NCBI RefSeq assembly: GCF_016093295.1
Contig: NZ_JAEDAL010000004.1
Coordinates: forward strand, 186,001 to 250,000
Origin: Inhella gelatinilytica
GTDB lineage: Bacteria > Pseudomonadota > Gammaproteobacteria > Burkholderiales > Burkholderiaceae_C
Reading direction: 5' to 3'
DNA length: 64,000 nucleotides
The notes under the pieces: generated by a model
What the model was told of the DNA's origin: nothing
What the model saw: the letters and a program-made list of their open reading frames with translations, nothing else
The model's database searches: none
Translations under genes and position numbers: made by a program
In this document: positions 51,020-64,000 of the stretch, piece after piece
How the letters are laid out: each line of letters starts with the position of its first letter
Position numbering within the stretch: the first letter of the stretch is position 1

Positions 51020-51913
51020 TCAGCGAGACTGGCTGGCGAAGGTGATGGTCACATCGACCTTGGGGACGTTCTGCAGCGTGGTCACATTGCCCTCGATCGT
51101 GACATTGCGGGGCCCCGTTTCCACGGCGCCGATCGTGTCCACCACGTCAAGACCCGTCACCACCTTGCCAAACACCGCGTAGCCCGGCAGGGCCTCGCTT
51201 TGGAAATCAAAGTCCGGGTTGTCGCGCATGTTGATGAAGAACTGCGAGGTGGCGGTGTCCGTGCCGGCCAGACGCGCCATGGCAATCGTGCCCTGCAGGT
51301 TCTTGAGCCCGTTGTTGGACTCGTTCTTGATCGGCTCCTTAACCACGGTGATGGGCACCAGGGCCGTGCCAGTTCTGAACCCGCCCGCCTGGATCACTCC
51401 AAAGGCTGGATCCACCCGGTGGAACACCACGTTGCGGTAAAAGCCCTCGGCCACGTAATCGAGGAAGTTGTTCACCGACAACGGCGCCTTGATCGGATCC
51501 AGCTCCAGCACCATCGTGCCCTTGTTCGTGATCAACGTGACTTGGGGCGTCGGCACGTCCAGCGTCAACGTGCCCAGGCGCTTGCCAGCGGCGTTCTCCA
51601 CCGTCACCAAGAGGGCACCGAGCTTGTCCACCTTGCAGGTGAAGGAGCGGCTGAACTGCGTTCCGCCCGTGGAGGCGGTGACGGCGCCACAGCCCTCGGG
51701 CACCACGACCTTGAGCCCATCGGTCAAGCCCCCCCCCGTCACCGACACCGTCATGGTTCGGCGGTAGCCCACCGTCGTGGCCGAGATTGAGGACACGGTT
51801 TCCTGGTTCTCCTTGTCGGCCAGGGCCCCGCCCCCGCCTCCACAGCCCACCAGGCTCAAGCCCAGGCCCAAGGTCAGCCCCCAGGACCACGCGCGTTGCA
51901 GATTCGTCTTCAT
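51020..51913 (-). CDS. Cyclophilin-type peptidyl-prolyl isomerase lipoprotein
   Basis: A 297-residue protein. The signal sequence ends in a lipobox (SLVGC, cysteine near residue 24) followed by five glycines, so it should be a lipoprotein. Residues about 30-125 form an extra beta-rich domain. The cyclophilin domain (about 125-297) has VFHRVDPAFGVIQAGGF with the catalytic arginine, and TATSQFFINMRDN and VFGKVVTGLDVVDTI. It probably folds exported proteins in the periplasm. It overlaps the tolC-like gene by four bases and has AAGGA seven bases before the ATG. Confidence 0.9.
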   Translation of the reverse strand: MKTNLQRAWSWGLTLGLGLSLVGCGGGGGALADKENQETVSSISATTVGYRRTMTVSVTGGGLTDGLKVVVPEGCGAVTASTGGTQFSRSFTCKVDKLGALLVTVENAAGKRLGTLTLDVPTPQVTLITNKGTMVLELDPIKAPLSVNNFLDYVAEGFYRNVVFHRVDPAFGVIQAGGFRTGTALVPITVVKEPIKNESNNGLKNLQGTIAMARLAGTDTATSQFFINMRDNPDFDFQSEALPGYAVFGKVVTGLDVVDTIGAVETGPRNVTIEGNVTTLQNVPKVDVTITFASQSR

Positions 51914-53298
51914 GGTTTGTCCTTTTCTTGCGCAGCCGCGGCCTCCACCGGCGCGCCCGCCATTCCTAACCAGCGCTCGACCTCTTGAGCCACCTCAGCC
52001 GGCACCGTGCCGCTGAGCAGTTGCAACCGGGCGCGGGCCAGCACACCGTCAAGCTGTGCCTGCAGCAATTCCTTGCGCGCGTTGAAAAGACGGCTCTGCG
52101 CCTCCAACACATCCGCCGTGGTGCGCACGCCGGCCTGCAAGCCGCGCTGCACGCCCTCGACCATCAATTCGGCCGCGCGCACGGCGTCTTGGTAGAGGCC
52201 CACCCGCTCACGCCCGTTCAGCGCCGCCCAATATTGGCGCTCCACTTCAACCTGAGCCGTGCGGCGCTCGGCCTCCAGCTCGGCCTGGACTTTTAGCAGG
52301 TCGGACTGCGCGGCTTGAACCCCAGCATGGACGCCCCCGCCGTTGTAGATCGGCACGCTGAGCTGCAGGCCGTAGCTGCGCAGGCGGTTGCTTTGATTCA
52401 GGTTGCTGACCGACTCGTTGCTGCTGGTCTGCGCGCTGGCCACCAGGTCCAGGCGTGGGTAGTAGCCCGCCTGCTGGCGTTCCACCCCCATGCGCGCCAC
52501 TTCCACGTTTTTCTCGCGCGCCTGGATGGCGGCATGGAAGCGCAGCGCATGGGATTGCCATTCGCTCAAGTCCGTCGGGTCCAACGGCATCAGCTGCCAG
52601 CTGGCGGACACCTTGGGCACCTCGTCCACCTCGGTGCCCGTCAGGCGCACCAAGCCAGCGCGCGCCACCCGCACCTGGTCGCGGGCCTCGCTCACGCGGG
52701 CCTGCACCAGAGCGTGCTGAGCGCGGGCGTCGGCCAGTTCGATGCGCGAGCCCTCGCCCCGCTGCAGGCGCTGCTCGGCACGGCTGACCTGCTCCTCAAT
52801 CCAGCGCTGCTGAGCCTGGGCCTGGGTCAGCGCCTCCTCGGCCAGCAGGCGCTGCAGGTAGGCCACGGCCAGTCGGTCCAGCAGTTCATTGCCGCGCACG
52901 CGGTAGAGCGCGTCGGCCGCATCGGCCTGGCGCATGGCCTGCTTGTAGCGGGTGATGGCGTCGGCATTGAACAGCGGCGCCCGCAGCTGCAGCGCGTTTT
53001 GCGGGGCGATGTAGTCCACCGTCACCGTCACCGGCTGGTTGAGCGCGTTGGAGAAGTCGCGCTCCCCTTGGGTGCGCATCCGGTTGGAGCTCCAGGACAG
53101 CGTGGGCAGCAAGCCCGCACGCGCCACGCCCACGCCGTGGTGGGCGGAGTTGCGTTCGTGCCGCGCCGCCTCGAACTGGGCGTCGTGGCTCACCGCGGCG
53201 TCAAAGGCGCGCGCAAAGCCCAGCACCTCCGCGGTGGCACCCGCGCCCAGGCAAGCCAGGCTCAGCGCCAGGACCGTTTTACGCAAAGAGCCAGCCAT
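51910..53298 (-). CDS. TolC family outer-membrane channel protein
   Basis: A 462-residue protein with signal peptide (MAGSLRKTVLALSLACLGAG ... A). It has the duplicated TolC pattern of helices: AFDAAVSHDAQFEAARHERN in repeat 1, FNADAITRYKQAMRQADAAD, and LVASAQTSSNESVSN ... VPIYNGGGVHAGVQAAQSD in repeat 2. It should form the outer-membrane tunnel for the adjacent type I secretion system. The ATG at 53298 has AGGAGG at ideal spacing; a GTG two codons upstream overlaps the hlyD-like stop. Confidence 0.92.
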   Translation of the reverse strand: MAGSLRKTVLALSLACLGAGATAEVLGFARAFDAAVSHDAQFEAARHERNSAHHGVGVARAGLLPTLSWSSNRMRTQGERDFSNALNQPVTVTVDYIAPQNALQLRAPLFNADAITRYKQAMRQADAADALYRVRGNELLDRLAVAYLQRLLAEEALTQAQAQQRWIEEQVSRAEQRLQRGEGSRIELADARAQHALVQARVSEARDQVRVARAGLVRLTGTEVDEVPKVSASWQLMPLDPTDLSEWQSHALRFHAAIQAREKNVEVARMGVERQQAGYYPRLDLVASAQTSSNESVSNLNQSNRLRSYGLQLSVPIYNGGGVHAGVQAAQSDLLKVQAELEAERRTAQVEVERQYWAALNGRERVGLYQDAVRAAELMVEGVQRGLQAGVRTTADVLEAQSRLFNARKELLQAQLDGVLARARLQLLSGTVPAEVAQEVERWLGMAGAPVEAAAAQEKDKP

Positions 53299-53300
53299 AC

Positions 53301-54668
53301 TCACTCCTCCTTCATGGCCGCTGCGATCCGCTTGGTCAGCGGGTGCAGCAGGTAGGTCAGCAGCGAGCGCTCGCCGGTGCGGATCAGCACCTCGGCCGGC
53401 ATGCCGGGCTGCAGCTGGCGATGGCCCAGGGTCTTCAGGCCCTCAGGCGTCAGCTCCACGCGGGCGGCGTAATAGGTCTGCACCATCGAGCCCACCTGCT
53501 CCGTCACCGCATCGCCGGCCAAGCTCTTGAGCTTGGCATCCACCACCAGTTGGGGCGAATTGGCAAAGCCCGAGAAGCGCACCTCGGTGGCATCGCCCAC
53601 GCGCACGCGGTCGATCACGTGGGGCGGCACCTTGACGTCCAGGATCAGCGTCTCGCCTGCGGGCACCACGTCCATCAGGCGCTGGCCGGGCGACACCACA
53701 CCGCCCACGCCGCCCAACTGCAGGCCCACGATCTGACCGTCCATGGGGGCCACGATCTGGGTGCGCTTGAGTTCACCACGAATCGCGACCAGCTTTTCCT
53801 GGTTGGCCTGAACTTCGCGGCGCACATCGGTCAGCTGGGCCGAAGTCTCTTTCAGGTATTCCTGACGGCGCATCGCCATGCGCTGGCGCGTCTCGGCAAT
53901 GCCGTTGAGTGCCCGTTGAATGTTGGCCTGCACGTCCGCCATGCCAGCACGCAGCTCGGCTTGCGACTGCTCCAGCTGCAAGGCCTGGTTGCGCGGTGCA
54001 AAGCCGTCGGCTGCCAGGCTCTTGACGTTGTTCAGCTGCTCGCTCTGGTAGCGCGCTTGGGCCTGGCGCCCCTCCAGCACGCCCCGCAGGCCGGTGACCT
54101 GGGCTTGCAGACCGCCGATGGCCTCTTCGCCCGCGGCCATCTCGGCCTGTTGGGCGGCCCGCCGCGCGTCGAACAGCTGCTGCTGCGCCATCATGTGCGG
54201 CTTGGCCGGCCCGTCAGCCGCGGCCAGCACATCGGGGTGGAAGCTGATGCGCCCCGCCCCGCTGAGTTCCGCCAGCAAGCGGCTTTCCATCGCGCGCTGG
54301 GCCAGGTAGGCCTGCTGGATGGTTTCGTAGCCGGCGCGGGTGGTGGCATCGTCCAGCACCACCAGCACGTCGCCCGCCTTGACGGGCTGTGCATCGTGGA
54401 CGCGCAGCTCCTTGATCACCCCACCCTGCAAGTGCTGAATGGGCTTGCGCCGCGACTCCACGGCCACCGTACCCTGTGCCGAGACCCCTTCGTCCAGCGG
54501 GGCCCAGGCGGCCCAAGCCAGGAAGGCGCCAAAGCCCACCACCAGCACCCAGAACCCCAGGCGGATGGGACCGCGGGTGTCAGACAGCAGGGCCACGTCG
54601 GTGACGTCCACCGCCTCGCCGCTGTTGTTGCGGGGCGTGCCCGCCGTCGTCCCTTGGGAAGCGTTCAT
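53301..54668 (-). CDS. HlyD family type I secretion membrane-fusion protein
   Basis: A 455-residue periplasmic adaptor. A single N-terminal membrane helix (about 36-56, LGFWVLVVGFGAFLAWAAWA) is followed by a biotinyl-lipoyl-like half (VIKELRVHDAQPVKAGDVLV), a long helical hairpin (about 110-290), and the second lipoyl half (IVAPMDGQIVGLQLGGVGGV). The end KVPPHVIDRVRVGDATEVRF is typical of HlyD/PrtE. It bridges the ABC transporter and TolC. The ATG at 54668 was preferred; an ATG at 54674 and a TTG at 54686 are possible. It lies 47 bp after the ABC gene. Confidence 0.93.
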   Translation of the reverse strand: MNASQGTTAGTPRNNSGEAVDVTDVALLSDTRGPIRLGFWVLVVGFGAFLAWAAWAPLDEGVSAQGTVAVESRRKPIQHLQGGVIKELRVHDAQPVKAGDVLVVLDDATTRAGYETIQQAYLAQRAMESRLLAELSGAGRISFHPDVLAAADGPAKPHMMAQQQLFDARRAAQQAEMAAGEEAIGGLQAQVTGLRGVLEGRQAQARYQSEQLNNVKSLAADGFAPRNQALQLEQSQAELRAGMADVQANIQRALNGIAETRQRMAMRRQEYLKETSAQLTDVRREVQANQEKLVAIRGELKRTQIVAPMDGQIVGLQLGGVGGVVSPGQRLMDVVPAGETLILDVKVPPHVIDRVRVGDATEVRFSGFANSPQLVVDAKLKSLAGDAVTEQVGSMVQTYYAARVELTPEGLKTLGHRQLQPGMPAEVLIRTGERSLLTYLLHPLTKRIAAAMKEE

Positions 54669-54715
54669 GCTCATCTCTCGTTTCAACTCGTCAATTCGTT
54701 GTGTTCGGCGGTGGC

Positions 54716-56476
54716 TCAGCCGGCAGCGGGCTTGAGCGCGCCGGGGCCGGCCAAGGTGTTCGCAAAACCCGCGGGTGCCGCGGGCGGGGCGGTTTGCACC
54801 TTCACTTCGGCGATCTGGGCGATCTGCCCGGCCTGTAGCACCAGCACCCGGTCACAGGCGACCAAGACCTTTTGCTGGTGCACGATCATGAACACCGTGC
54901 TGCCGCCGGCCTTCAGGTCGCGCACGGCGCGAATCAGTGCGGTCTCACCCACGTCGTCCAGGTTGGCATTGGGCTCGTCCAGCACCACCAGGCGGGGGTT
55001 GCCGTACAGCGCCCGGGCCAAGCCGATGCGCTGGCGCTGCCCACCTGAAAGCAGGCCGCCCGCCTCGCCCATGGGCGTGTCATAGCCCTTGGGGAAGCGC
55101 AGCACCATCTCGTGGATGCCAGTGCGCTGGGCCGCCTCGATGACCTTCATCGGGTCCATCTGCGCAAAGCGGGCAATGTTTTCGGCGATCGTGCCCTCGA
55201 ACAGCTCGATGTCCTGGGGCAGGTAGCCGACATGGGGGCCCAAGGCCTCGCGCGACCAGCTCTCGATGGGCTGGCCATCCAGCAGCACCGTGCCCTGGGT
55301 CTCCGGCCAGATGCCCAACAGGCAACGCGCCAGCGTGGACTTGCCCGCGCCCGAAGGGCCGACGATGCCCACCACCTCGCCGGCCTTGAAGTCGGCAGTC
55401 AGGCCTTTGAGGATGGGCTCCTTGCGCGCGGGGGCAGTGGCCACGAGGTCACGCAGGCTGATTTGGCCTTGCACGGTTTGACCGGCATGCTCGTCGCCGC
55501 GGGGTGGGTGGGTCACCAGCAGCGCATCCAGGCGGTGATAAGACTGGCGAGCATCAATGAACTGCTTCCAGGTCGCCACCAAGGTGCCGATGGGGCGCAT
55601 GGCGTTAGAGGCCAGGGCATTCGAGGCCACCATGGCGCCCACACCGATTTCGCCTTTCACGGCCAGCCAGGCTCCCAGGCCCAGCATCAGCGACTGCTGG
55701 GTGTACTGGATGAACTTGACCGTGGCCTGGATGCGGTGCTGCAGGTGCATGGCATCACCCTGCTGGGCCAACTGCGCTTCATAACCAGCCTGCCACTGGC
55801 GGCGCAGGTTGCCCTGCATGCCCAGGGCCTCAATGGTCTCGGCGTTGCGCAGCTTGCCCACCAAGAAGCTGGTGGAGCCGCTGGTCGCATCGTTCGCCGC
55901 CTCGACGCGCTGCGCCGAAATGCGGTGCGACCAGACCGCCACAAGGGCCAGCACGATACAGGCCACCACCGCACCCCAGCCCAGCAGCGGGTGCATCAAA
56001 AAGAGGACGCCGATGTAGATCAAGGCCCAGGGCGTGTCGAAGAACGCGAAGACCCCGTTGCCGGTGAGGTACTGACGCAGCATCACCAAGTCGCCGAAGG
56101 CCTGCAGCGGTTTGGCCGAGGAGCCGCCCAGCCGCGCTTCGAAGCTTGCGTCGAACACCCGGGTGTTGAGGAACTGGTCGAAGCGCACGCCAGCGCGCAC
56201 CAGCAGGCGCGAGCGCACCCACTCGGAGAAGGCCATGACGGCGAAGAACAGCACCGTCACCAAGGTCAAGGCAATCAGTGTCCAGCCACTGCCCGACAAC
56301 ATGACGCGGTCGAACACCTGCAGCATGTACAGCGTGGGCGTCAGCATCAGCACGTTCACGAACAGGCTGAACACCGCCACCCAGATCAGTTCCTTGCGGA
56401 AGCCCTGCAGGCTGCGGCGCAACACCCCAGTGCCGCCGTCCGTTGCCTTCATTTCACTCATCCCCGATTCCTTCAT
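54716..56476 (-). CDS. Type I secretion ABC transporter, permease-ATPase (second copy)
   Basis: A 586-residue PrtD-type half-transporter with five to six membrane segments (about 25-300) and an ATPase domain. Walker A is GPSGAGKSTLARCLLG, the Q-loop GYLPQDIELFEGT, the signature LLSGGQRQRIGLARAL, Walker B LVVLDEPNANLDD, and the switch histidine lies in FMIVHQ. No C39 peptidase domain is present, so substrates would carry a C-terminal secretion signal. The start overlaps the preceding gene as ATGA; an ATG at 56461 has a better ribosome site (AAGGA). It is a diverged paralogue of its upstream neighbour. Confidence 0.92.
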   Translation of the reverse strand: MKESGMSEMKATDGGTGVLRRSLQGFRKELIWVAVFSLFVNVLMLTPTLYMLQVFDRVMLSGSGWTLIALTLVTVLFFAVMAFSEWVRSRLLVRAGVRFDQFLNTRVFDASFEARLGGSSAKPLQAFGDLVMLRQYLTGNGVFAFFDTPWALIYIGVLFLMHPLLGWGAVVACIVLALVAVWSHRISAQRVEAANDATSGSTSFLVGKLRNAETIEALGMQGNLRRQWQAGYEAQLAQQGDAMHLQHRIQATVKFIQYTQQSLMLGLGAWLAVKGEIGVGAMVASNALASNAMRPIGTLVATWKQFIDARQSYHRLDALLVTHPPRGDEHAGQTVQGQISLRDLVATAPARKEPILKGLTADFKAGEVVGIVGPSGAGKSTLARCLLGIWPETQGTVLLDGQPIESWSREALGPHVGYLPQDIELFEGTIAENIARFAQMDPMKVIEAAQRTGIHEMVLRFPKGYDTPMGEAGGLLSGGQRQRIGLARALYGNPRLVVLDEPNANLDDVGETALIRAVRDLKAGGSTVFMIVHQQKVLVACDRVLVLQAGQIAQIAEVKVQTAPPAAPAGFANTLAGPGALKPAAG

Positions 56477-58269
56477 GCTGCGCCCCCGACCTTGATGGGC
56501 ATCGCCATGGCGGCCCCAGGCTTGGGTGCCGCTTGGGCGGCTTGGGCCGCACCTTGTTGCGCGGCCTTGTTCAACTGCGCCATCACCTCGTCTCGCGGGC
56601 CGAAGGCCGCCACCTGGCCGTCGCGCAGGATCAGCAGCTTGTCGCAGGCTGGCAGCACGGCCGTGCGGTGGGTGATCACCACCACCGTGGCCTTGCGGGC
56701 CTTGAGCGTCAGCAGCAACTGCACCAGGGCCTTTTCGCCGGCCTCGTCCAGGCTGGCGTTGGGTTCATCCATGACGATGAAGCTCGGGTCACCATAGATT
56801 GCCCGGGCCAGGGCCACGCGCTGGCGTTGGCCACCCGACAGCACGGCGCCGTCTTCACCCAGCTTGGTTTCCCAGCCCTCGGGCAGGCTCTGAACCCATT
56901 CGGTCAAGCCGACCTGGGCCGCGGCCCGCTCGACCTTCTCCAGGTCCACCTTGCCGAAGCGGGCGATGTTCTCGGCCAGCGTGCCGTCAAACAGTTCCAC
57001 GCCCTGCGGCACATAGCCCAGGTGGGGCCCCAGCTTCTCCTTCGGCCAACCGTACACGTCGGCCCCATCCAGGCGCACCGTGCCCGAGAGCGTGGGCCAC
57101 AGGCCCACCATCAGGCGCGCCAAGGTAGTCTTGCCGCTGGCCGACGGGCCGATCACCGCCACCACCTCGCCAGGGCTGACCGCGAAGCTGGCGCCACGGA
57201 TGATGGGCAGTTGCGAACCCGGGGCCGCAGCCAACACGCCTTCGACGCTCAGCTGGCCCTTGGGCGGCGGCAACTCCATGCCCTCCTGGCCTTCAGGCAC
57301 GGCGGCCAAAAGGCTGTCTAGGCGCCTCCAGGAATCGCGGGCATTGACCACTAGGCGCCACTGGCCCACGAGCTGAGTCAAGGGCGTCAGCACCCGACCA
57401 CCGAGGATGGAGGCCACCAGCATCATGCCGCCCCCCCCCGCCAAGTCGCCCTGCAAAGTAAGCCAGCACGAGGCCCCCAGCAGCAGCGAGCCCTGCAGGC
57501 CCTGCAGCATCTTGGACACCGCCGTGTTCAGGCCGGCGCGGTCAGAGGCCGCAGCTTGGTTGCCCAGCATGCCCTCCTGGCGCTTGAGCCAGCGCAACCG
57601 GATGGCGCCCAGCATGCCCATGCTCTCGATCACCTGGGCATTGCGCAGGCTGGCGCCGGCGTAGCCCTGCGCCTCGATCGAGGCCTTGTTCGCCTCCATC
57701 AGCATGGGCATGGTGTAGCGCTCGGTCAACCAGGCAATCACACCCAACAGCGCCGCGCCCAATGCTGCCAGCACCCCCAGCCAAGGACTGATGGCCGCTA
57801 CCAGGACCAGGAACACCAGCGAAGCCGGCAGGTCAAACAGCGCCGTCACCACCGGCGTGGCCGCCGCGTCGCGCAGCGTGCGCAGGTCGGAGAACACCTG
57901 CACGCTGCCGCCCGGCTGCTTGCGCAGTTGCTGGCGGAAGGCGGCATCAAACAAGCGCAGGCGTAGCCGCGCGTCCAGGTTCAGGCCCACCTGCTGCAAC
58001 AGCCGCAGACGTACCACATCCAACAACTCCATGACCACGTAGGCCGCCACCACCATCACGGTCAGCATCAGCAAGGTGGTTTCGTTGCGGCTGTTCAGCA
58101 CACGGTCGTAGACCTCCAGCATGTACCAGGTGGGCGCCAGGAACAGCAGGCTGGTGACCAGGCTGTAGCCCGCCACCCGCGCCAGCAGGGGCGATTGGGC
58201 GCGCAGGCCTTCGCGGAGTTCAGACACGGGCGCTTGGCCCGGCTGGGGCATTCGAGGGGGTGCAGACAT
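56473..58269 (-). CDS. Type I secretion ABC transporter, permease-ATPase (first copy)
   Basis: A 598-residue PrtD-type half-transporter. Membrane segments fill about residues 25-300. The ATPase has Walker A GPSASGKTTLARLMVG, Q-loop GYVPQGVELFDGT, signature LSGGQRQRVALARAI, Walker B FIVMDEPNASLDE and the switch histidine in VVVITHR. The C-terminus is an Ala/Gln-rich tail (AAQQGAAQAAQAAPKPG). Both ATPase sites of the pair look complete, so the two proteins could form a heterodimer or two homodimers. The gene starts 15 bp after the TnpB-like gene. Confidence 0.93.
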   Translation of the reverse strand: MSAPPRMPQPGQAPVSELREGLRAQSPLLARVAGYSLVTSLLFLAPTWYMLEVYDRVLNSRNETTLLMLTVMVVAAYVVMELLDVVRLRLLQQVGLNLDARLRLRLFDAAFRQQLRKQPGGSVQVFSDLRTLRDAAATPVVTALFDLPASLVFLVLVAAISPWLGVLAALGAALLGVIAWLTERYTMPMLMEANKASIEAQGYAGASLRNAQVIESMGMLGAIRLRWLKRQEGMLGNQAAASDRAGLNTAVSKMLQGLQGSLLLGASCWLTLQGDLAGGGGMMLVASILGGRVLTPLTQLVGQWRLVVNARDSWRRLDSLLAAVPEGQEGMELPPPKGQLSVEGVLAAAPGSQLPIIRGASFAVSPGEVVAVIGPSASGKTTLARLMVGLWPTLSGTVRLDGADVYGWPKEKLGPHLGYVPQGVELFDGTLAENIARFGKVDLEKVERAAAQVGLTEWVQSLPEGWETKLGEDGAVLSGGQRQRVALARAIYGDPSFIVMDEPNASLDEAGEKALVQLLLTLKARKATVVVITHRTAVLPACDKLLILRDGQVAAFGPRDEVMAQLNKAAQQGAAQAAQAAPKPGAAMAMPIKVGGAA

Positions 58270-58284: not shown

Positions 58285-58956
58285 TCAATCGTGAGGGGCG
58301 GCGCGTGGCGCCTCCCCCATCCGGGCCGGCGCTAGGCGCGGCGCATTTGGGTCGTCGGGGGTCACCAGCAGGTATTCAGGCCACTGGGGGCCATTGGCAT
58401 CAGCTTCGAGCGCCTCCGCCGCGTGCTCGTCCTCGCCTTGGGAAAAGGCAAAACTCAGCTCGAAGCCCTCGCCGCGACGCGCCAACACCACCTCGCGCAG
58501 GCGGCCCTCGTGCAGCAACGCCTCCACGTCCGAGTCCATACGCACGTCAAATCGCATGCGTCCATCCAGAGTGAACAGCGACAACACACCCTCTTTCAGG
58601 CTCAGGGTGTGGCGATCGAAGTACACGGGCGAGGAGTCCGCAAACTGCAACAGTGGTAAGGCGCGCTCACCCAAGCGCTGCACATTGAAGGGGCTGGCGC
58701 GGTGTTGGTACACCAAACGTGCCGAGCGGCTCACCGAGTAGATGGCGTTGCACACCATTTGCGAGCCCAGCTCCGGAAACTGCTCGCGCAGCTGCTTGTA
58801 GGCCATGTGGTGTAAGGCGACGCGGTTCCAGCAGCGCGTTTCGCGCACCTTGGGCGCCAGCGCATTGCAGGCCCGCGCAAACGCCTGCTGCAACGCCACC
58901 AGCCGTTGGCGCTGGGCGTCGTTCAGGTGCAGGGCGATGGACGCGCGGGATTTCAT
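58285..58956 (-). CDS. TnpB (IS605 OrfB)-like N-terminal protein without RuvC nuclease
   Basis: A 223-residue protein resembling the non-catalytic front part of TnpB. A helical region (about 7-83) has LNDAQRQRLVALQQAFARAC, NRVALHHMAYKQLREQFPEL and SQMVCNAIYSVSRSARLVY. It is followed by the beta-rich wedge-like segment (about 108-172) with YFDRHTLSLKEGVLSLFTLD and LREVVLARRGEGFELSFAFS. In full TnpB the RuvC domain and a zinc ribbon come next. Here the protein ends with about 50 acidic and proline-rich residues, with no D-x-G motif and no CxxC pair. The frame is intact and codon use matches its neighbours. I infer a domesticated nucleic-acid-binding regulator. The similarity is by eye only. Confidence 0.72.
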   Translation of the reverse strand: MKSRASIALHLNDAQRQRLVALQQAFARACNALAPKVRETRCWNRVALHHMAYKQLREQFPELGSQMVCNAIYSVSRSARLVYQHRASPFNVQRLGERALPLLQFADSSPVYFDRHTLSLKEGVLSLFTLDGRMRFDVRMDSDVEALLHEGRLREVVLARRGEGFELSFAFSQGEDEHAAEALEADANGPQWPEYLLVTPDDPNAPRLAPARMGEAPRAAPHD

Positions 58957-59004
58957 ATAGGACGGCAGTATAGCGCATCCTATATGAATGTTGTCCTATA
59001 TGAA
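58952..59004. promoter_or_regulatory. Three-copy TCCTATATGAA motif around the TnpB-like gene start
   Basis: On the plus strand TTCATATAGGAC (58952-58963), ATCCTATATGAA (58977-58988) and GTCCTATATGAA (58993-59004) share an 11-bp core. Copies 1 and 2 form a perfect 11-bp inverted repeat with a 15-bp spacer; copies 2 and 3 are direct repeats 16 bp apart. A minus-strand TATACT (58972-58967), a possible -10 element, lies between copies 1 and 2. Copy 1 covers the ATG of the TnpB-like gene, and copy 3 covers the stop of the upstream glycosyltransferase. This AT-rich cluster in GC-rich surroundings looks like an operator. Confidence 0.7.
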
Positions 59005-60414
59005 GTTTTGCCGCACCTCCGGCCAGAAGCGCATCACGCCACACAGTTCGATGTCGATCGCCCCCACATTGGTGAAATCCCCCCGGGTCTGCGCCAAGCG
59101 CTGCAAAAAACGCTGGGTGCGCTCCGGGTGCGCGGACAAGGCCTGCAGCGCCTGCAAGGTGGCCGCAAACGTAGGGGCGCTGCGATCGTGCAGGTCCAGG
59201 AACCAGCGCTGGGCGGTGTCAATCGCCTCCAAGGCCGCTGGGGCCGTCAAGGCCGGGGGCAAGCGCATCTGCCAGCGCTCGACTCCAGCGCCCGCCGGCG
59301 GTGAGCCCTCGGGAAGGCGTTCCCAGTCCGGATCCCACTGACCCGCCACGAGGGCCAGAAAGCGCTCCGCATGGGCCTGGTAGCGCCCAAAGGCCTGCGG
59401 CACCCGGCCCTGGCGGCCCTCGACCGCGGCGAGCAAGTCAGCGCCCGAGAGGTGGCCCAGCGAGTGGTCGTGGTGGGTGTCGAACACCAGACCCGGGTGG
59501 TAGTGGACCGGCACCAGCGCCTCGCCTGGCACCAACTCCGGAGCCGCTGCGTGTTGGCCCCCGATGACGGGAATGCCGGCGAATGAGGCCTCGATCAGCA
59601 CCCGGCCCAGGGTCTCCAGGTTGGAGGTGCTGGGGAACAGCATCACGTCCATGCGCCCCAGCACGCCCCAGACTGCGGCGTTGGGAAGCGCGCCACAGTG
59701 CTCGAAGGCACTGGGCGTGACGCCCTGCTCCGCCAAGGCCGCACGCACCCGCTCGGGGTGACAGGAGGCCGAGTGCACGTCGCCGCAGGCCAGCAGGAGG
59801 TGCCGGCCCGGCTGACGGCGCTCCAGCGCGATCAGCAGCTGAACCAGGTCGGGAAAGTTCTTGTCTTCCGAGAGCCGGCCCAGGTAGCCCAGCACCTGGC
59901 GACCCAGCGGGTCGGGCACGCGCGCCGGCGGTGAAGCGGGGAAGCCCACCGTCAAGGGGTAGCACAGCGGCAGCGGGTGCCCCGCCAGATGCGGGAAAAA
60001 ATGACGGTACAGCGACTGCGTGTAGACGCTCGCCACCATCAGCACGTCGCCCTCGCGCAGCAGTGGCGCGCACAGGTGCTCCTGCAACAGATAGCTGCTC
60101 CACATGGCGGTGCGCACGTCTCGGATCACCCTGTAGCGCAAGCCCAGCCGCTCGCGCAGCGCCAGGTAGTAGTGCGCGTGCGGGCCCACATTGGCCACCA
60201 CGCAGTCCACGTCCGCCAAGGCTTCGGCGGCGTGGTCGTCGCTTCGCAGCAACGCCAGCAGGTCGTGGAAGCGCACGTCCAGCCCCACCGCTGCGGGTGA
60301 GCGCAACAGGGCTGCGATGTTCTCGTGCGCCAGGTTGACGCCGTCCTTCTGCGGCAGCAGCGGATCGGTGCGGTAGTCATGCAGCGCCACCCGAGGCCGG
60401 GCCACTGCCCTCAT
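58996..60414 (-). CDS. GT4-like glycosyltransferase
   Basis: A 472-residue protein with the GT-B fold of family 4. The C-terminal half has VLGYLGRLSEDKNFPDLVQL near 175 and PSTSNLETLGRVLIEASFAG near 262, with the E-x7-E pair in ETLGRVLIEA. The N-terminal half (DYRTDPLLPQKDGVNLAHEN) and the last 110 residues are not familiar. The ATG at 60414 overlaps the preceding stop by four bases; the longer frame to 60615 is the neighbour in another frame. The acceptor is unknown. Its final codons carry one copy of the operator-like repeat. Confidence 0.78.
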   Translation of the reverse strand: MRAVARPRVALHDYRTDPLLPQKDGVNLAHENIAALLRSPAAVGLDVRFHDLLALLRSDDHAAEALADVDCVVANVGPHAHYYLALRERLGLRYRVIRDVRTAMWSSYLLQEHLCAPLLREGDVLMVASVYTQSLYRHFFPHLAGHPLPLCYPLTVGFPASPPARVPDPLGRQVLGYLGRLSEDKNFPDLVQLLIALERRQPGRHLLLACGDVHSASCHPERVRAALAEQGVTPSAFEHCGALPNAAVWGVLGRMDVMLFPSTSNLETLGRVLIEASFAGIPVIGGQHAAAPELVPGEALVPVHYHPGLVFDTHHDHSLGHLSGADLLAAVEGRQGRVPQAFGRYQAHAERFLALVAGQWDPDWERLPEGSPPAGAGVERWQMRLPPALTAPAALEAIDTAQRWFLDLHDRSAPTFAATLQALQALSAHPERTQRFLQRLAQTRGDFTNVGAIDIELCGVMRFWPEVRQNFI

Positions 60415-61988
60415 GGCATGGCCTCGGCTTGGCGGGCCGCTCTCAACTGCGCCATCAAGCGGCTGCCAAAGGCCGCCAGGTCCAAGCGCTCGCCCTCGGC
60501 CCAGGGGCCGGGAAGGTTGAGCCCGTAAGCCGGGTTGAGCACCTCCGTGCCATGGGCCACATGCCCGCCGGAGCGAAAAAACGGCAAGGGCCCGAGGCGC
60601 CCCAGCAGCGGGCACTCGGCCCGGTCGGTCGGCGTCTCACCGGCCCAACAAACGATCAAGTCGGGCGGTAGCTCGGGGTGCTCGTGCGGGGCCCGGCGCG
60701 TGCGCTGCAAACGCTGCACCAGGGGCTGGCCCGTGCGACCGTCGCGCAAGCCGCGCAGGCCCTGCTCCAGTTGCGCCAAGGTGGCGTCATAGTCGGCCGG
60801 CGCGACCTGGCCATTTGCCTCGCGGCCCTGCACATTCAAGCGCACATAACCATCGGACACCGAGGGCAAGGCAAAGACTTTCATCTGGGGCCACAGCGGC
60901 TGGTACCAGCGTGCCGGGTTCCAGCTCAGGGCCTCGCCCTGGGCCTCCAAATCTTGGGGCGAGCTCAGATGGGCCCGGCCCCAGGGCGAGCACTGGCCCC
61001 AAATCACTTCCTTCCAATGCCGGTCAGCCGGCCAGACCGGCGGCGCCCCGGCGGGCTCCCCGCCCACCAGCGCCACCCGACCCGGAAAGTTCCAACGCAG
61101 CAGCCACTCGGGCAAAAAGGCCATGGTCGGCAGGTCCATGGTGTTGGCCACCGTATGGTCCAGTGTCAGCACCGCCAGCGGCTGCCCGGGCGCCAAGGCC
61201 GCGCGAACCTGGCCAATGCTCGCGTCAATGGCCTGCATCACCCTCATCACCGCCCCCCGCTCGGCATCTGCCGCGTCCGCAGCCGGGTGCGGGCGCTGCC
61301 AGTGCCAGAGGGCGTGGTTGGCACTGTGGCCTTCGACGATGGCCGCCAGCACCAAATCCCAGGGCCCGCGCTGCAGCAGGTCCAGCAGGATGGCCGTGCG
61401 CCGTTGCACCGCCTCCACCAGGTTGGACGCAAAGCGTGCCGTGCCCACCGGGTCGTACAGGTTGGGCATGCGGTAGCTGCGCTCGGGCGCGCCGGTGCGC
61501 GGGTCTCGCACGGCCATCGAGGTCACCAGCTTGGGGTCGGCGCCATGGCGCTGCAGCATCTCGTCCATCAGCCCGGGCGGGTCCGACAGCGCCGCCGCCG
61601 CATTGAGCTCACTGCCCCAACCGCTGAGCTGCAGCCCCGGCAAGCCCGGCACCAGCGGGCCGAGCAGGTCAAAGGTGCAGACGCGCAGATCGGCCTGGGC
61701 GTAAAACGGCGGCTGCAGCGTCGCGGCGCCGCGCTGAGGGGACTCGTTGAAGTAGGCGTAGCGCGCCGGGTCGAAGCTCGAACCGCAGTGCGGTTGGTCG
61801 GTACCGGTGAGGAAGATTTCCCAGCAGCGCTCGTTGCGGAATTGCTTCTGATGGACCAGGGTCAGCGTCTGGCCTGCCTCTTGAATGCGGCGCAGCTGGG
61901 GCAGATGCCCCGCTGCCAGCGCCTCGTTCAGCAGCTCGGTGTTGAAGCCGTCCAGGCACAGGACGACCGGCCCCGCCGTGGCGCTCAT
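60411..61988 (-). CDS. Alkaline phosphatase superfamily protein with altered active site
   Basis: A 525-residue protein that resembles the nucleotide pyrophosphatase/phosphodiesterase branch of the alkaline phosphatase superfamily. VVLCLDGFNTELLNEALAAG gives the first metal aspartate, FLTGTDQPHCG matches the usual L-T-G-x-x-P-x-x-H-G block, EGHSANHALWHW sits where D-x-x-x-H is expected, and LDHTVANTMD where S-D-H-G is expected. By eye the usual nucleophile Thr or Ser is replaced, so activity is uncertain. No signal peptide is seen. GGAG seven bases upstream supports the ATG at 61988. It overlaps both neighbours by four bases. Confidence 0.7.
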   Translation of the reverse strand: MSATAGPVVLCLDGFNTELLNEALAAGHLPQLRRIQEAGQTLTLVHQKQFRNERCWEIFLTGTDQPHCGSSFDPARYAYFNESPQRGAATLQPPFYAQADLRVCTFDLLGPLVPGLPGLQLSGWGSELNAAAALSDPPGLMDEMLQRHGADPKLVTSMAVRDPRTGAPERSYRMPNLYDPVGTARFASNLVEAVQRRTAILLDLLQRGPWDLVLAAIVEGHSANHALWHWQRPHPAADAADAERGAVMRVMQAIDASIGQVRAALAPGQPLAVLTLDHTVANTMDLPTMAFLPEWLLRWNFPGRVALVGGEPAGAPPVWPADRHWKEVIWGQCSPWGRAHLSSPQDLEAQGEALSWNPARWYQPLWPQMKVFALPSVSDGYVRLNVQGREANGQVAPADYDATLAQLEQGLRGLRDGRTGQPLVQRLQRTRRAPHEHPELPPDLIVCWAGETPTDRAECPLLGRLGPLPFFRSGGHVAHGTEVLNPAYGLNLPGPWAEGERLDLAAFGSRLMAQLRAARQAEAMP

Positions 61989-63862
61989 AGTCGGCTCCCT
62001 TGCGTCCACTGCAGGGCCTGCACACGCGCCGCATGGGGCTGCGCCAGGGTGCAGGCCTGGTGCCAGCGGGCGCGGTCCGCACCGGTCAGTCCGGCGGCAG
62101 CATCTGGCAGCAAGAGCGTCTGCAACCAGGGCGTGGGCAGGCCGCGGCCCAGCACCTCGGCATCACTCAACACCAGCACGGCCGCCTGCAGCGCCGGGTG
62201 CTGCAGCAGCACCTGGGCTTGCTCCCAAGCGTCACTGCCCGCCCCCGTCGCCGGCGCCGGCCGCGGCCAACCCAGGCGCTGCCCCGCGCTCCAGGCGTGG
62301 CCGGGCGCCGACCAAGCCGTGCAGCCCAGCGTTTGCGCCAGCGCCTGGAGGTGGCGCGCCGTCGGCCAAGCCAGGGCCTGCGGCCACAGCAGCACGTGCA
62401 CCTGGACGCGCTGCGCCGGCGGCACCCAGGCGGCCAGCAGGTCCCGGTAGAGGCCAGGGGTGTCGCGGTAGCCCAGCTGCGGCTGGGCATTCACCTCGCA
62501 GATCACCGCTTCCTGGGCGTGCCAGGGCTGGGCGATGTCGGCGGCAATCAGGTCGATGCCCGCCAGGTCCAGGCGCAGCGCTGCGGCGGCCCGCACAGCC
62601 AGGCTCACGTTGTCCGGGTGCACCGCCGAAAGCGGCACCAGGGCATGCGTACCGCCGGTGGAGATGTTGGCCTTGCGGCGCAGGCGCACTGCTTGACCGG
62701 CAGCCAAGACCGTGTCCGGCGCCAAGCCCTGCTCGGCCAGCAAGTCCAGGGCTTCGGCATCCAGGCTGACGCGCGGCGTCCCGCTGCGGCGGAACGCACG
62801 CAGGTTCTCGGTCGTTTGGCCCAGGCGCTCGACCAGGACCGCCACCGTGTCCTCTCCCGTGCCGACGATTTGGGCCGGGCGCCGGTGCATCACCTTGATC
62901 AGCTGGCCCTGCACCACGGTGAGCCGGTAGTCCTCGCCCCGGCAATGGCGCTCGATCAGGATCTCGGCCGAATGCTGGCGCGCCTCGCGGTAGTGCGCGC
63001 GCACCTGGGCTTCGGTGGCCAGCTCGGTGAACACCCCGCGGCCCTGATCCTGGTCATTGGGTTTGACCACGATGGGCCAGCCCAACTGCCCGGCCGCCTG
63101 CACGGCCTCGGCCTCGTCGCGGACCAGCCGGTGCTGCGGCGCAGGCAGGCCTGCCCGGCGCAGCACCGTGGCCGTGTGCAGCTTGCTGCGCGCCAGCGAC
63201 ACGCCCAGCGACGGCGTGCGGTCGGTGATTGTGCTGCTCAACCAGCGCGCACCTGCCCCCAGGCCGAAGGCATGGACGCCGCTCACCAGCAAGCCGGCCT
63301 CCAACTTCAGCTCGCGGGCTGCGGCCAAAAAATGCAGCACATTGGTGCCGCCCACGCCGCAGGGGCGCAGCGCCTGGCGCAACGCCTGCAAGGCCGGCGC
63401 CCACACCTCGGGGCCGGTCTTGGGCGCGTCCAGCACCGTGCCCAGCTGGCGCAAGGCCCAAGCCAAGCTGTGCTCAAAGGCGACGGTATGGCCCACGGGC
63501 AAAACCCAGGTCCATGCCGCGCCGTCGGCTGCATCCGCCGCAGCGGCCTCCGCCAAAACGGTTTGACAGGGACCGAACACGGGCACGCCCTGCTCGCGCT
63601 GCACGGCCGCCATCCAGCGGTGCAGCCACGCCAGCACCCAGGGTTGGGCGGCCGGCGCGGGCGGTGTGGCCTCCGGGTGCGGGTCCGAGACTTCGACCTC
63701 CAGCCAGTCGGTGAGCGCTTGCACCGCCGCGGGCGTGCAACCCTCGGGCAGACGCAGGCGCAGCTCGGCCACGGCCACGCGTTGGTGCACGCCATGGCCG
63801 CTGCCATCCAGCACGCGCAGCGGGCCCCGCCAGCGCAAGCCTGTGAACCCCCGAGCCGTCAT
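61985..63862 (-). CDS. ATP-grasp ligase resembling cyanophycin synthetase, without Mur-ligase domain
   Basis: A 625-residue protein. The ATP-grasp part (about 215-465) follows the cyanophycin synthetase (CphA) pattern: SLGVSLARSKLHTATVLRRA near 222, VVKPNDQDQGRGVF near 265, ERHCRGEDYRLTVV, AQIVGTGEDTVAVLVERLGQ, KANISTGGTHALVPL near 398 and CEVNAQPQLGY near 454. The N-terminal 200 residues are also faintly CphA-like (VLPVGHTVAFEHSLAWALRQ). CphA then has a Mur-ligase half; here the last 160 residues show no P-loop and no known domain. It may form amide bonds using ATP and amino acids or a carboxylated acceptor. The ATG overlaps the preceding stop. Confidence 0.78.
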   Translation of the reverse strand: MTARGFTGLRWRGPLRVLDGSGHGVHQRVAVAELRLRLPEGCTPAAVQALTDWLEVEVSDPHPEATPPAPAAQPWVLAWLHRWMAAVQREQGVPVFGPCQTVLAEAAAADAADGAAWTWVLPVGHTVAFEHSLAWALRQLGTVLDAPKTGPEVWAPALQALRQALRPCGVGGTNVLHFLAAARELKLEAGLLVSGVHAFGLGAGARWLSSTITDRTPSLGVSLARSKLHTATVLRRAGLPAPQHRLVRDEAEAVQAAGQLGWPIVVKPNDQDQGRGVFTELATEAQVRAHYREARQHSAEILIERHCRGEDYRLTVVQGQLIKVMHRRPAQIVGTGEDTVAVLVERLGQTTENLRAFRRSGTPRVSLDAEALDLLAEQGLAPDTVLAAGQAVRLRRKANISTGGTHALVPLSAVHPDNVSLAVRAAAALRLDLAGIDLIAADIAQPWHAQEAVICEVNAQPQLGYRDTPGLYRDLLAAWVPPAQRVQVHVLLWPQALAWPTARHLQALAQTLGCTAWSAPGHAWSAGQRLGWPRPAPATGAGSDAWEQAQVLLQHPALQAAVLVLSDAEVLGRGLPTPWLQTLLLPDAAAGLTGADRARWHQACTLAQPHAARVQALQWTQGSRL

Positions 63863-64000
63863 GCGGACGCCCCTTCCGACTGCTGCCGGGCGGCAGCGGC
63901 CACCCACTGTTCAAACGCCCGCGCCCCGCCTTGCGCCGGCTGCGGGTCCTCGCCCAAGGCCTGGGCCAGTTGGGCCAATTCCGTCATCTCGCCAGCAAAG
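63859..64000 (-). CDS. C-terminal end of an unidentified protein (cut by window edge)
   Basis: The minus strand is open from the right edge to a TGA that overlaps the ATP-grasp start by four bases (ATGA). The 46 visible residues (FAGEMTELAQLAQALGEDPQ ... AFEQWVAAAARQQSEGASA) are helical and Ala/Gln-rich. They are too few to identify. The coupled overlap shows it is another member of the same operon. Confidence 0.7.
   Translation of the reverse strand, partial: FAGEMTELAQLAQALGEDPQPAQGGARAFEQWVAAAARQQSEGASA

What the first reader, a model, noticed from the sequence alone, without database searches (positions are those of the whole stretch)
58285..58956. TnpB-derived protein lacking the RuvC nuclease, placed directly before a type I secretion operon
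The sequence shows an intact 223-residue frame with the helical and wedge-like blocks of IS605 TnpB (YFDRHTLSLKEGVLSLFTLD, LREVVLARRGEGFELSFAFS) but no RuvC D-x-G motif and no zinc ribbon. It is known that nuclease-dead TnpB homologues have been recruited as transcription regulators near transport and flagellin genes; those keep an inactive RuvC. A form reduced to the N-terminal half, embedded by short gaps in an export operon, would be a further type of domestication. A regulatory or RNA-binding role is inference.
Basis: partly seen in the sequence, partly recalled or inferred. Interest (0 to 1): 0.85.

Follow-up and report, generated by a model that had tools for sequence, protein, structure and literature searches.

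The report
Guide-free repressor from TnpB half
A gene-scissors protein from a jumping gene appears to have lost its cutting half and become an ordinary DNA-binding switch for a bacterial protein-export operon, which would be a new way of taming an RNA-guided nuclease.

Summary
The 223-residue ORF is real: it is the REC lobe (WED+REC) of an IS605-type TnpB, without RuvC. Two AlphaFold models match TnpB/Cas12f; full-length nuclease relatives share its core. It is not a decayed copy: 44 short homologues sit on one side of a tree branch (99/96), eight pairs show purifying selection, and in 43 of 43 loci an exporter ABC gene follows directly.

An 11-bp site, TTCATATAGGA, occurs exactly in 35 of 43 upstream regions (38 with at most one mismatch; 25 as an inverted pair). 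In the window's genome all three exact copies are in this promoter. 21 of 21 ABC relatives without the gene lack it. In two reordered operons it sits before the new first gene.

Some full-length relatives carry it over their own start codon (4 of 13 exact). Its first five bases, TTCAT, equal the insertion target of three related elements.

Best reading: a protein-only, TAM-reading autorepressor. Binding, guide-independence and repression are inferred. No guide RNA was found in limited searches.

The parts
58285..58956 (-). TnpB REC-lobe protein (WED+REC, about residues 1-172) with an acidic tail; proposed autorepressor of the operon
58952..58962 (+). Operator copy 1, TTCATATAGGA; on the gene strand TCCTATATGAA, containing the start codon
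58967..58972 (-). -10-like hexamer TATACT, 16 to 11 bases before the start codon, between the operator copies
   Evidence: family-wide position
58978..58988 (-). Operator copy 2, TTCATATAGGA
58994..59004 (-). Operator copy 3, TTCATATAGGA, 16 bp from copy 2, overlapping the stop codon of the upstream gene
56473..58269 (-). Type I secretion ABC transporter 1, directly downstream
54716..56476 (-). Type I secretion ABC transporter 2
53301..54686 (-). HlyD-family membrane fusion protein
51910..53304 (-). TolC-like outer membrane protein (OEP)

Best explanation
A tnpB gene was captured, apparently once, in front of a dual-ABC type I secretion operon and lost its RuvC half. What remains is the REC lobe (WED + REC), which in TnpB forms the cleft that reads the TAM in double-stranded DNA. 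The protein now acts as a protein-only repressor. It binds the 11-bp site TTCATATAGGA (TAM TTCAT plus six further bases), typically upstream of the -10 box and over the transcription start, and so shuts off its own operon, including the exporter. Shown by computation: TnpB-lobe likeness, RuvC absence, one tree group, purifying selection, constant operon position, conserved operator, operator/gene co-occurrence, the same site at start codons of some full-length relatives, and TTCAT as insertion target of three related elements. Inferred: that TTCAT is the TAM, that the protein itself binds the site without RNA, that binding represses, and that some unknown signal (possibly through the acidic tail) relieves it.
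For: Fold and homology. Operon: 43 of 43 loci have an ABC relative whose inferred start lies within 56 bases of the gene's end. Operator: 35 of 43 exact and 38 of 43 with at most 1 mismatch within 300 bp upstream; 32 of 43 with two or more non-overlapping sites, 25 of 43 as an inverted pair, 28 of 43 with a site over the start codon; 74 sites in 13,044 bp upstream against 4 in 596,562 bp elsewhere in the same loci, those 4 being the L112/L114 operon promoters. Own genome: 3 exact copies, all here; 4 more with one mismatch elsewhere. Exact site in 38 of 45 gene-bearing genomes and 4 of 35 controls. ABC relatives: 0 of 21 without the gene have the site or its TTCATATATGAA variant within 1.5 kb upstream; of 9 with the gene, 7 have the 11-mer (two of them one copy), 1 only the variant, 1 neither. 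L112/L114: the paired sites sit before an OEP (TolC-like) gene that precedes the short gene. Promoter: -10-like hexamer (4 or more of 6) at -17 to -12 in 36 of 43 against 2-8 of 42 at five control offsets. Full-length relatives: site over the start codon exact in 4 of 13 and within 1 mismatch in 7 of 13; transposon guides change with insertion place, so reading of this fixed site should be guide-independent (inference). Target TTCAT: G054 6 of 7 copies (the seventh lacks the left end), G490 3 of 3, G544 3 of 3. The WED/REC cleft binds the TAM duplex in ISDra2 TnpB (PMC10097598, passages). dN/dS 0.075-0.237 in 8 pairs.
Against: No binding, expression or structural experiment exists. 5 of 43 loci lack a site with at most 1 mismatch within 300 bp (L059, L061, L111, L112, L114); L112/L114 have it further up, L111 has none in the DNA held. 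Some members carry the variant TTCATATATGAA (L062, L110, L123) or a weaker form (L061, L059). 7 of 45 gene-bearing genomes have no exact site. Most of the 21 exporters without the gene are more distant relatives (27-49% identity); only L131 and L137 are as close (56-58%) as the gene-bearing ones. Single-copy relatives show NTCAT rather than strictly TTCAT (by eye), and G054/G544, which give clean TTCAT flanks, lie further off in the tree and do not show the start-codon site. TTCAT at an end of an 11-mer has roughly a 2 in 1024 chance. TAM-contacting residues of ISDra2 were not mapped onto this family. Gene and start-codon site could be inherited together for another reason. An activator role is not excluded.
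Confidence: 0.72

Rival explanations
1. A RuvC-less, still RNA-guided TldR-type repressor: a small RNA made elsewhere supplies a short guide reading ATAGGA next to the TAM TTCAT.
For: The operator has the length of a TAM (5) plus 6 bases, and fliC-TldR works with guides as short as 6 nt and has a 6-nt seed (PMC13418256, passages).
Against: The RuvC domain, which with WED binds the wRNA scaffold (PMC10097598, passages), is missing. No Rfam match in the window. One scaffold-end plus seed pattern, GTTTAC-ATAGGA with up to 2 mismatches, gives 26 matches in the own genome against 29 for its reversed control. Upstream DNA (-600 to -55) shows almost no shared sequence: 3 hits in 903 pairs, two of them near-identical kin. 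A seed would be free to drift with its guide, yet the 11-mer is exact in 35 of 43 loci of several families, and it already sits in transposon-type copies whose guides must differ. These searches cannot exclude an RNA made elsewhere.
Confidence: 0.1
2. The protein is an accessory part of the exporter (substrate chaperone or ATPase partner), and another regulator reads the promoter site.
For: Strict adjacency and frequent start/stop overlap with the ABC gene; conserved C-terminal PEYVxVE-type tail.
Against: The site follows the TnpB-lobe gene, not the exporter: 0 of 21 exporters without the gene have it, and it occurs at tnpB start codons in viral contigs. The segments most alike between short and full-length proteins are in the REC helices.
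Confidence: 0.09
3. The site acts in the mRNA (leader or start-codon element) and the protein binds RNA to control translation.
For: One copy overlaps the start codon in 28 of 43 loci.
Against: The -10-like box lies 12-17 bases before the start codon in 36 of 43, leaving nearly no leader; further copies lie upstream of the inferred start, and orientation and spacing vary; in L112/L114 both copies lie before the OEP gene.
Confidence: 0.05
4. A decayed transposon fragment without function.
For: N-terminal half of TnpB only.
Against: 44 short members on one side of a branch, from several families and one further order, dN/dS 0.075-0.237 in 8 pairs, constant synteny.
Confidence: 0.01

Closest known systems
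IS200/IS605 TnpB (ISDra2 TnpB, PDB 8exa/8bf8)
   Same: Same strand-helices-barrel order as its WED-REC lobe; full-length relatives of the window protein share 28-39% identity and the WNRVALHH/GSQMVC core
   Different: No RuvC, no TNB/zinc ribbon, no adjacent guide found; chromosomal operon gene, one copy per genome except G387, which has a second, partial copy
TldR (TnpB-like nuclease-dead repressors)
   Same: TnpB-derived, domesticated, regulating transcription next to non-transposon genes such as flagellin (PMC13418256, passages)
   Different: TldRs keep gRNA and DNA binding with an inactivated nuclease domain; here RuvC is absent, no guide was found, and the proposed target is fixed and in its own promoter
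Cas12f / dCas12f
   Same: Highest Foldseek matches (9n9c, 9i8y)
   Different: RNA-guided, with RuvC; the shared part is the REC lobe only
Classical autorepressors of transport operons (TetR/MarR type; recalled)
   Same: Usually first gene of the operon, operators around the -10 box, own-promoter control
   Different: Unrelated fold; asymmetric 11-bp site in variable orientation and spacing rather than one fixed palindrome

Membership tests
TnpB | WED + REC lobe | tested here: met
TnpB | RuvC with D/E/D residues and zinc ribbon (TNB) | tested here: not met
   Absent in the 36 short members aligned; OrfB_IS605 and Cas12f1-like_TNB found in 4 of 4 full-length relatives scanned, and seen in the alignment (L154 is cut by its contig end)
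TnpB | Transposon ends and wRNA at the right end | tested here: not met
   The gene runs into or nearly into the ABC gene, leaving no room for a right end
TldR | RuvC present but inactivated | tested here: not met
   RuvC wholly missing
TldR | Adjacent guide RNA cassette | tested here: inconclusive
   None seen; one guide pattern sought genome-wide, at background; an RNA made elsewhere cannot be excluded
TldR | Represses transcription at a TAM-flanked site | not testable with these tools
   Site anatomy fits; no experiment
Type I secretion operon | ABC exporter + HlyD-type MFP + TolC-type OMP | tested here: met
   in the window; by clustering ABC in 23 of 23, MFP in 20 and OMP in 20 of 23 loci
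Self-regulating transcription factor | Conserved operator in own promoter, co-occurring with the gene | tested here: met
Self-regulating transcription factor | Protein binds the operator | not testable with these tools
   Needs gel shift or footprint

The most novel reading that the evidence does not exclude
The TAM-reading lobe of an RNA-guided nuclease works by itself as a conventional, guide-free transcription factor. This ability is older than the domestication: transposon-type tnpB genes of this group already carry the same TAM-based operator over their own start codon and autoregulate through it, so TnpB has a second, RNA-independent DNA-binding mode from which a host repressor could be made simply by losing the nuclease.
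Probability: 0.6. Interest if true: 0.92.

Novelty: new variant of a known kind. Interest (0 to 1): 0.82.

Why it matters
The TnpB domestications known to me (Cas12, TldR) keep the guide RNA. Here the nuclease and apparently the guide are gone, and TAM recognition alone seems to have become sequence-specific gene control. This gives a testable route from RNA-guided enzyme to ordinary repressor, a small natural DNA-binding module with a defined 11-bp site, a predicted control point for type I secretion in this group of bacteria, and a hint that transposon TnpBs regulate themselves without a guide.

Tried and rejected
Sequence searches of the ORF alone and of the 36-row profile against PDB sequences gave nothing relevant; Pfam and NCBIfam of all 36 members gave only weak scattered hits. 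A guide RNA was sought in Rfam, as one scaffold-plus-seed pattern and as shared upstream DNA: nothing. A regulon was sought: among 45 gene-bearing genomes, exact sites away from the gene occur in G232 (2), G241 (1) and G386 (1), and G387 has one beside its second, partial copy; 4 of 35 control genomes have one site each, so no regulon is indicated. Plasmids hold only one relative, a Methylomarinovum transposase. Weak profile hits G775, G545 and G581 are short frames that look like the REC helices only (two of the three typed into Pfam, no family) and were set aside. In one search, of 40 matching genomes 37 have strong hits; G152, G089 and G031 are weak or partial and were dropped. Of 47 short homologues known, 43 loci were used for the counts and L123 only for the tree; G196, G260 and G352 were not fetched. 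L160 was dropped as identical to L158; L172-L175, L178, L179 and L181-L183 re-fetch earlier contigs. The start-codon count covers 13 full-length relatives; L065, L101, L105 and L108, also in the tree, were not in it and show no such site. The second model has full-length TnpB rows in its alignment, which could favour a TnpB-like fold; the first does not and gives the same match.

Literature: searches of the held PMC library (listings only) showed no RuvC-less TnpB regulator and no TnpB link to type I secretion; passages were seen of PMC13418256, PMC10097598 and PMC9956272. The main TldR paper (Nature 2024) and the TnpB/Cas12 survey (PNAS 2023) are not held and were not read.

Full report
OBSERVATION. 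The ORF 58285-58956 (-) is intact (223 aa, ATG). It lies 39 bases after a glycosyltransferase-like gene (58996-60615) and 15 bases before a type I ABC transporter gene, followed by a second ABC, an HlyD-like protein and a TolC-like protein.

WHAT IT IS. Family libraries barely see it. Whole-genome search finds two sets of relatives. First, short homologues, mostly about 200-235 aa: 37 of 399 sampled genomes of the same family have strong hits, plus 3 weak ones; 9 of 399 in the order sample, the own genome and G115 of the first sample included; 1 other strong hit, G1080, in the class sample of 369. Second, full-length or cut TnpB: G446, G490 (contig-end fragments), G054, G544, G622 (cut) and viral-contig copies; four scanned carry OrfB_IS605 and Cas12f1-like_TNB domains. 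The 15-row alignment shows near-identity of NRVALHH and LGSQMVC between short and full-length proteins. AlphaFold models (pLDDT 76.5 from 4 short sequences; 82.8 from 15 sequences) show a strand, three long helices, then a beta domain, the order of the ISDra2 WED-REC lobe (WED 1-12 and 117-176, REC 13-116; PMC10097598, passages). Foldseek has Cas12/TnpB/Fanzor-type structures in ranks 1-19 and 1-36, with moderate TM-scores. Short proteins form one side of a branch against 17 full-length or cut ones (99/96, all 200 bootstrap trees), which fits one origin. Eight pairs give dN/dS 0.075-0.237.

OPERON. By clustering, ABC relatives occur in 23 of 23 loci, MFP in 20 and OMP in 20 (missing ones are partly antisense ORF miscalls or contig ends). 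In 43 of 43 loci an ABC relative's inferred start lies within 56 bases of the gene's end, often with overlapping stop and start codons. Large proteins with two or more RTX-type motifs lie upstream in 8 of 23 loci; of six of these scanned, four match the RTX repeat, one DUF4214 and one nothing: plausible export substrates. No window ORF over 200 aa had two such motifs.

OPERATOR. TTCATATAGGA occurs three times at 58952-59004 and nowhere else exactly in the 3.52-Mb genome; 4 one-mismatch sites lie elsewhere, against 1 for the reversed control. Across 43 loci, 35 have it exactly and 38 within one mismatch in the 300 bp upstream, 32 with two or more non-overlapping sites, 25 as an inverted pair, 28 with a site over the start codon; 74 matches in 13,044 bp against 4 in 596,562 bp elsewhere. 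Those 4 lie in L112 and L114, where an OEP gene precedes the short gene and the paired sites sit before it: the site tracks the operon promoter. (In L112 about 0.6 kb separates the OEP gene from the short gene; L111 has the same OEP-first order but no site.) A -10-like hexamer lies 12-17 bases before the start codon in 36 of 43, against 2-8 of 42 at five control offsets. Orientation and spacing vary (inverted; direct at 12-16 or 31 bp; back to back), which suits a monomer reading an asymmetric site. Exporter relatives without the gene lack the site (0 of 21, most of them more distant). Exact sites: 38 of 45 gene-bearing genomes and 4 of 35 controls, with few sites away from the gene, so control looks local.

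ANCESTRY OF THE SITE. Before looking I noted that TTCAT might be the parental TAM (note). Left flanks of multi-copy elements read TTCAT: G054 6 of 7 copies, G490 3 of 3, G544 3 of 3. Single-copy relatives, read by eye, show TTCAT in L156 and L177 and other first bases before TCAT in L100, L154, L157, L158, L161 and L176; L155, L159, L162 and L180 are undetermined. Full-length relatives carry TCCTATATGAA over their own start codon exactly in 4 of 13, within one mismatch in 7 of 13; 2 of the 13 had no comparable start, L100 has 3 mismatches and L102 eight. Because a transposon's guide comes from flanking DNA and changes with each insertion, recognition of a fixed site at the tnpB start should not need the guide. 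This is inference from established TnpB biology, not shown here.

MECHANISM. The lobe that is kept is the one that grips the TAM duplex; the wRNA scaffold is bound by WED and the lost RuvC (PMC10097598, passages). I therefore favour direct reading of TTCATATAGGA by the protein and repression by occluding the promoter. The closest rival keeps RNA: fliC-TldR works with guides as short as 6 nt (PMC13418256, passages), and the operator has the length of a TAM plus six bases. Against it are the missing RuvC, no guide found in limited searches, and an 11-mer exact in 35 of 43 loci. What relieves repression is unknown; the acidic tail (mean charge -7 over 44 short proteins) ending in a PEYVxVE-type motif is a candidate sensor, purely a guess.

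NOVELTY. TnpB-derived repressors exist (TldR), but the RuvC remnant is absent here and no guide RNA was found. Nothing like a RuvC-less TnpB regulator appeared in the listings of nine searches of the held library; two highly relevant papers could not be read. I file it as a new variant of TnpB domestication. If guide-free binding is shown it would be a new kind.

Noticed in passing
L115 (G775), L116 (G545), L117 (G581): Frames matching only the REC-helix part of the profile (search E 5.6e-7 to 7.9e-4); from their likely starts about 80-86 residues. No Pfam family for the two scanned; perhaps a still smaller derivative or chance helical likeness.
   Followed up: partly
L171 (G387:C13:38581-38943): A second, partial copy (profile positions 4-117) with its own TTCATATAGGA site, apart from the copy at G387:C13:14462, with a frame resembling S-adenosylmethionine synthetase nearby (by eye).
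   Followed up: partly
L169, L170 (G232): Two TTCATATAGGA sites away from the gene in similar surroundings (followed by C[GA]AGGGCTAC), perhaps a repeat element.
   Followed up: no
L045 and L053, upstream of the gene: A 104-bp upstream stretch about 80% identical between two genera, not explained by the operator.
   Followed up: no
window 51020-51913: Cyclophilin-type prolyl isomerase gene after the TolC-like gene; clustered with genes in the same place in L053 and L059, perhaps an export foldase.
   Followed up: no
window 60411-62009 and 61985-63907: A 532-aa protein without a Pfam match at E 0.001 and a RimK-like ATP-grasp protein upstream on the same strand, possibly a peptide-modifying cluster.
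   Followed up: no
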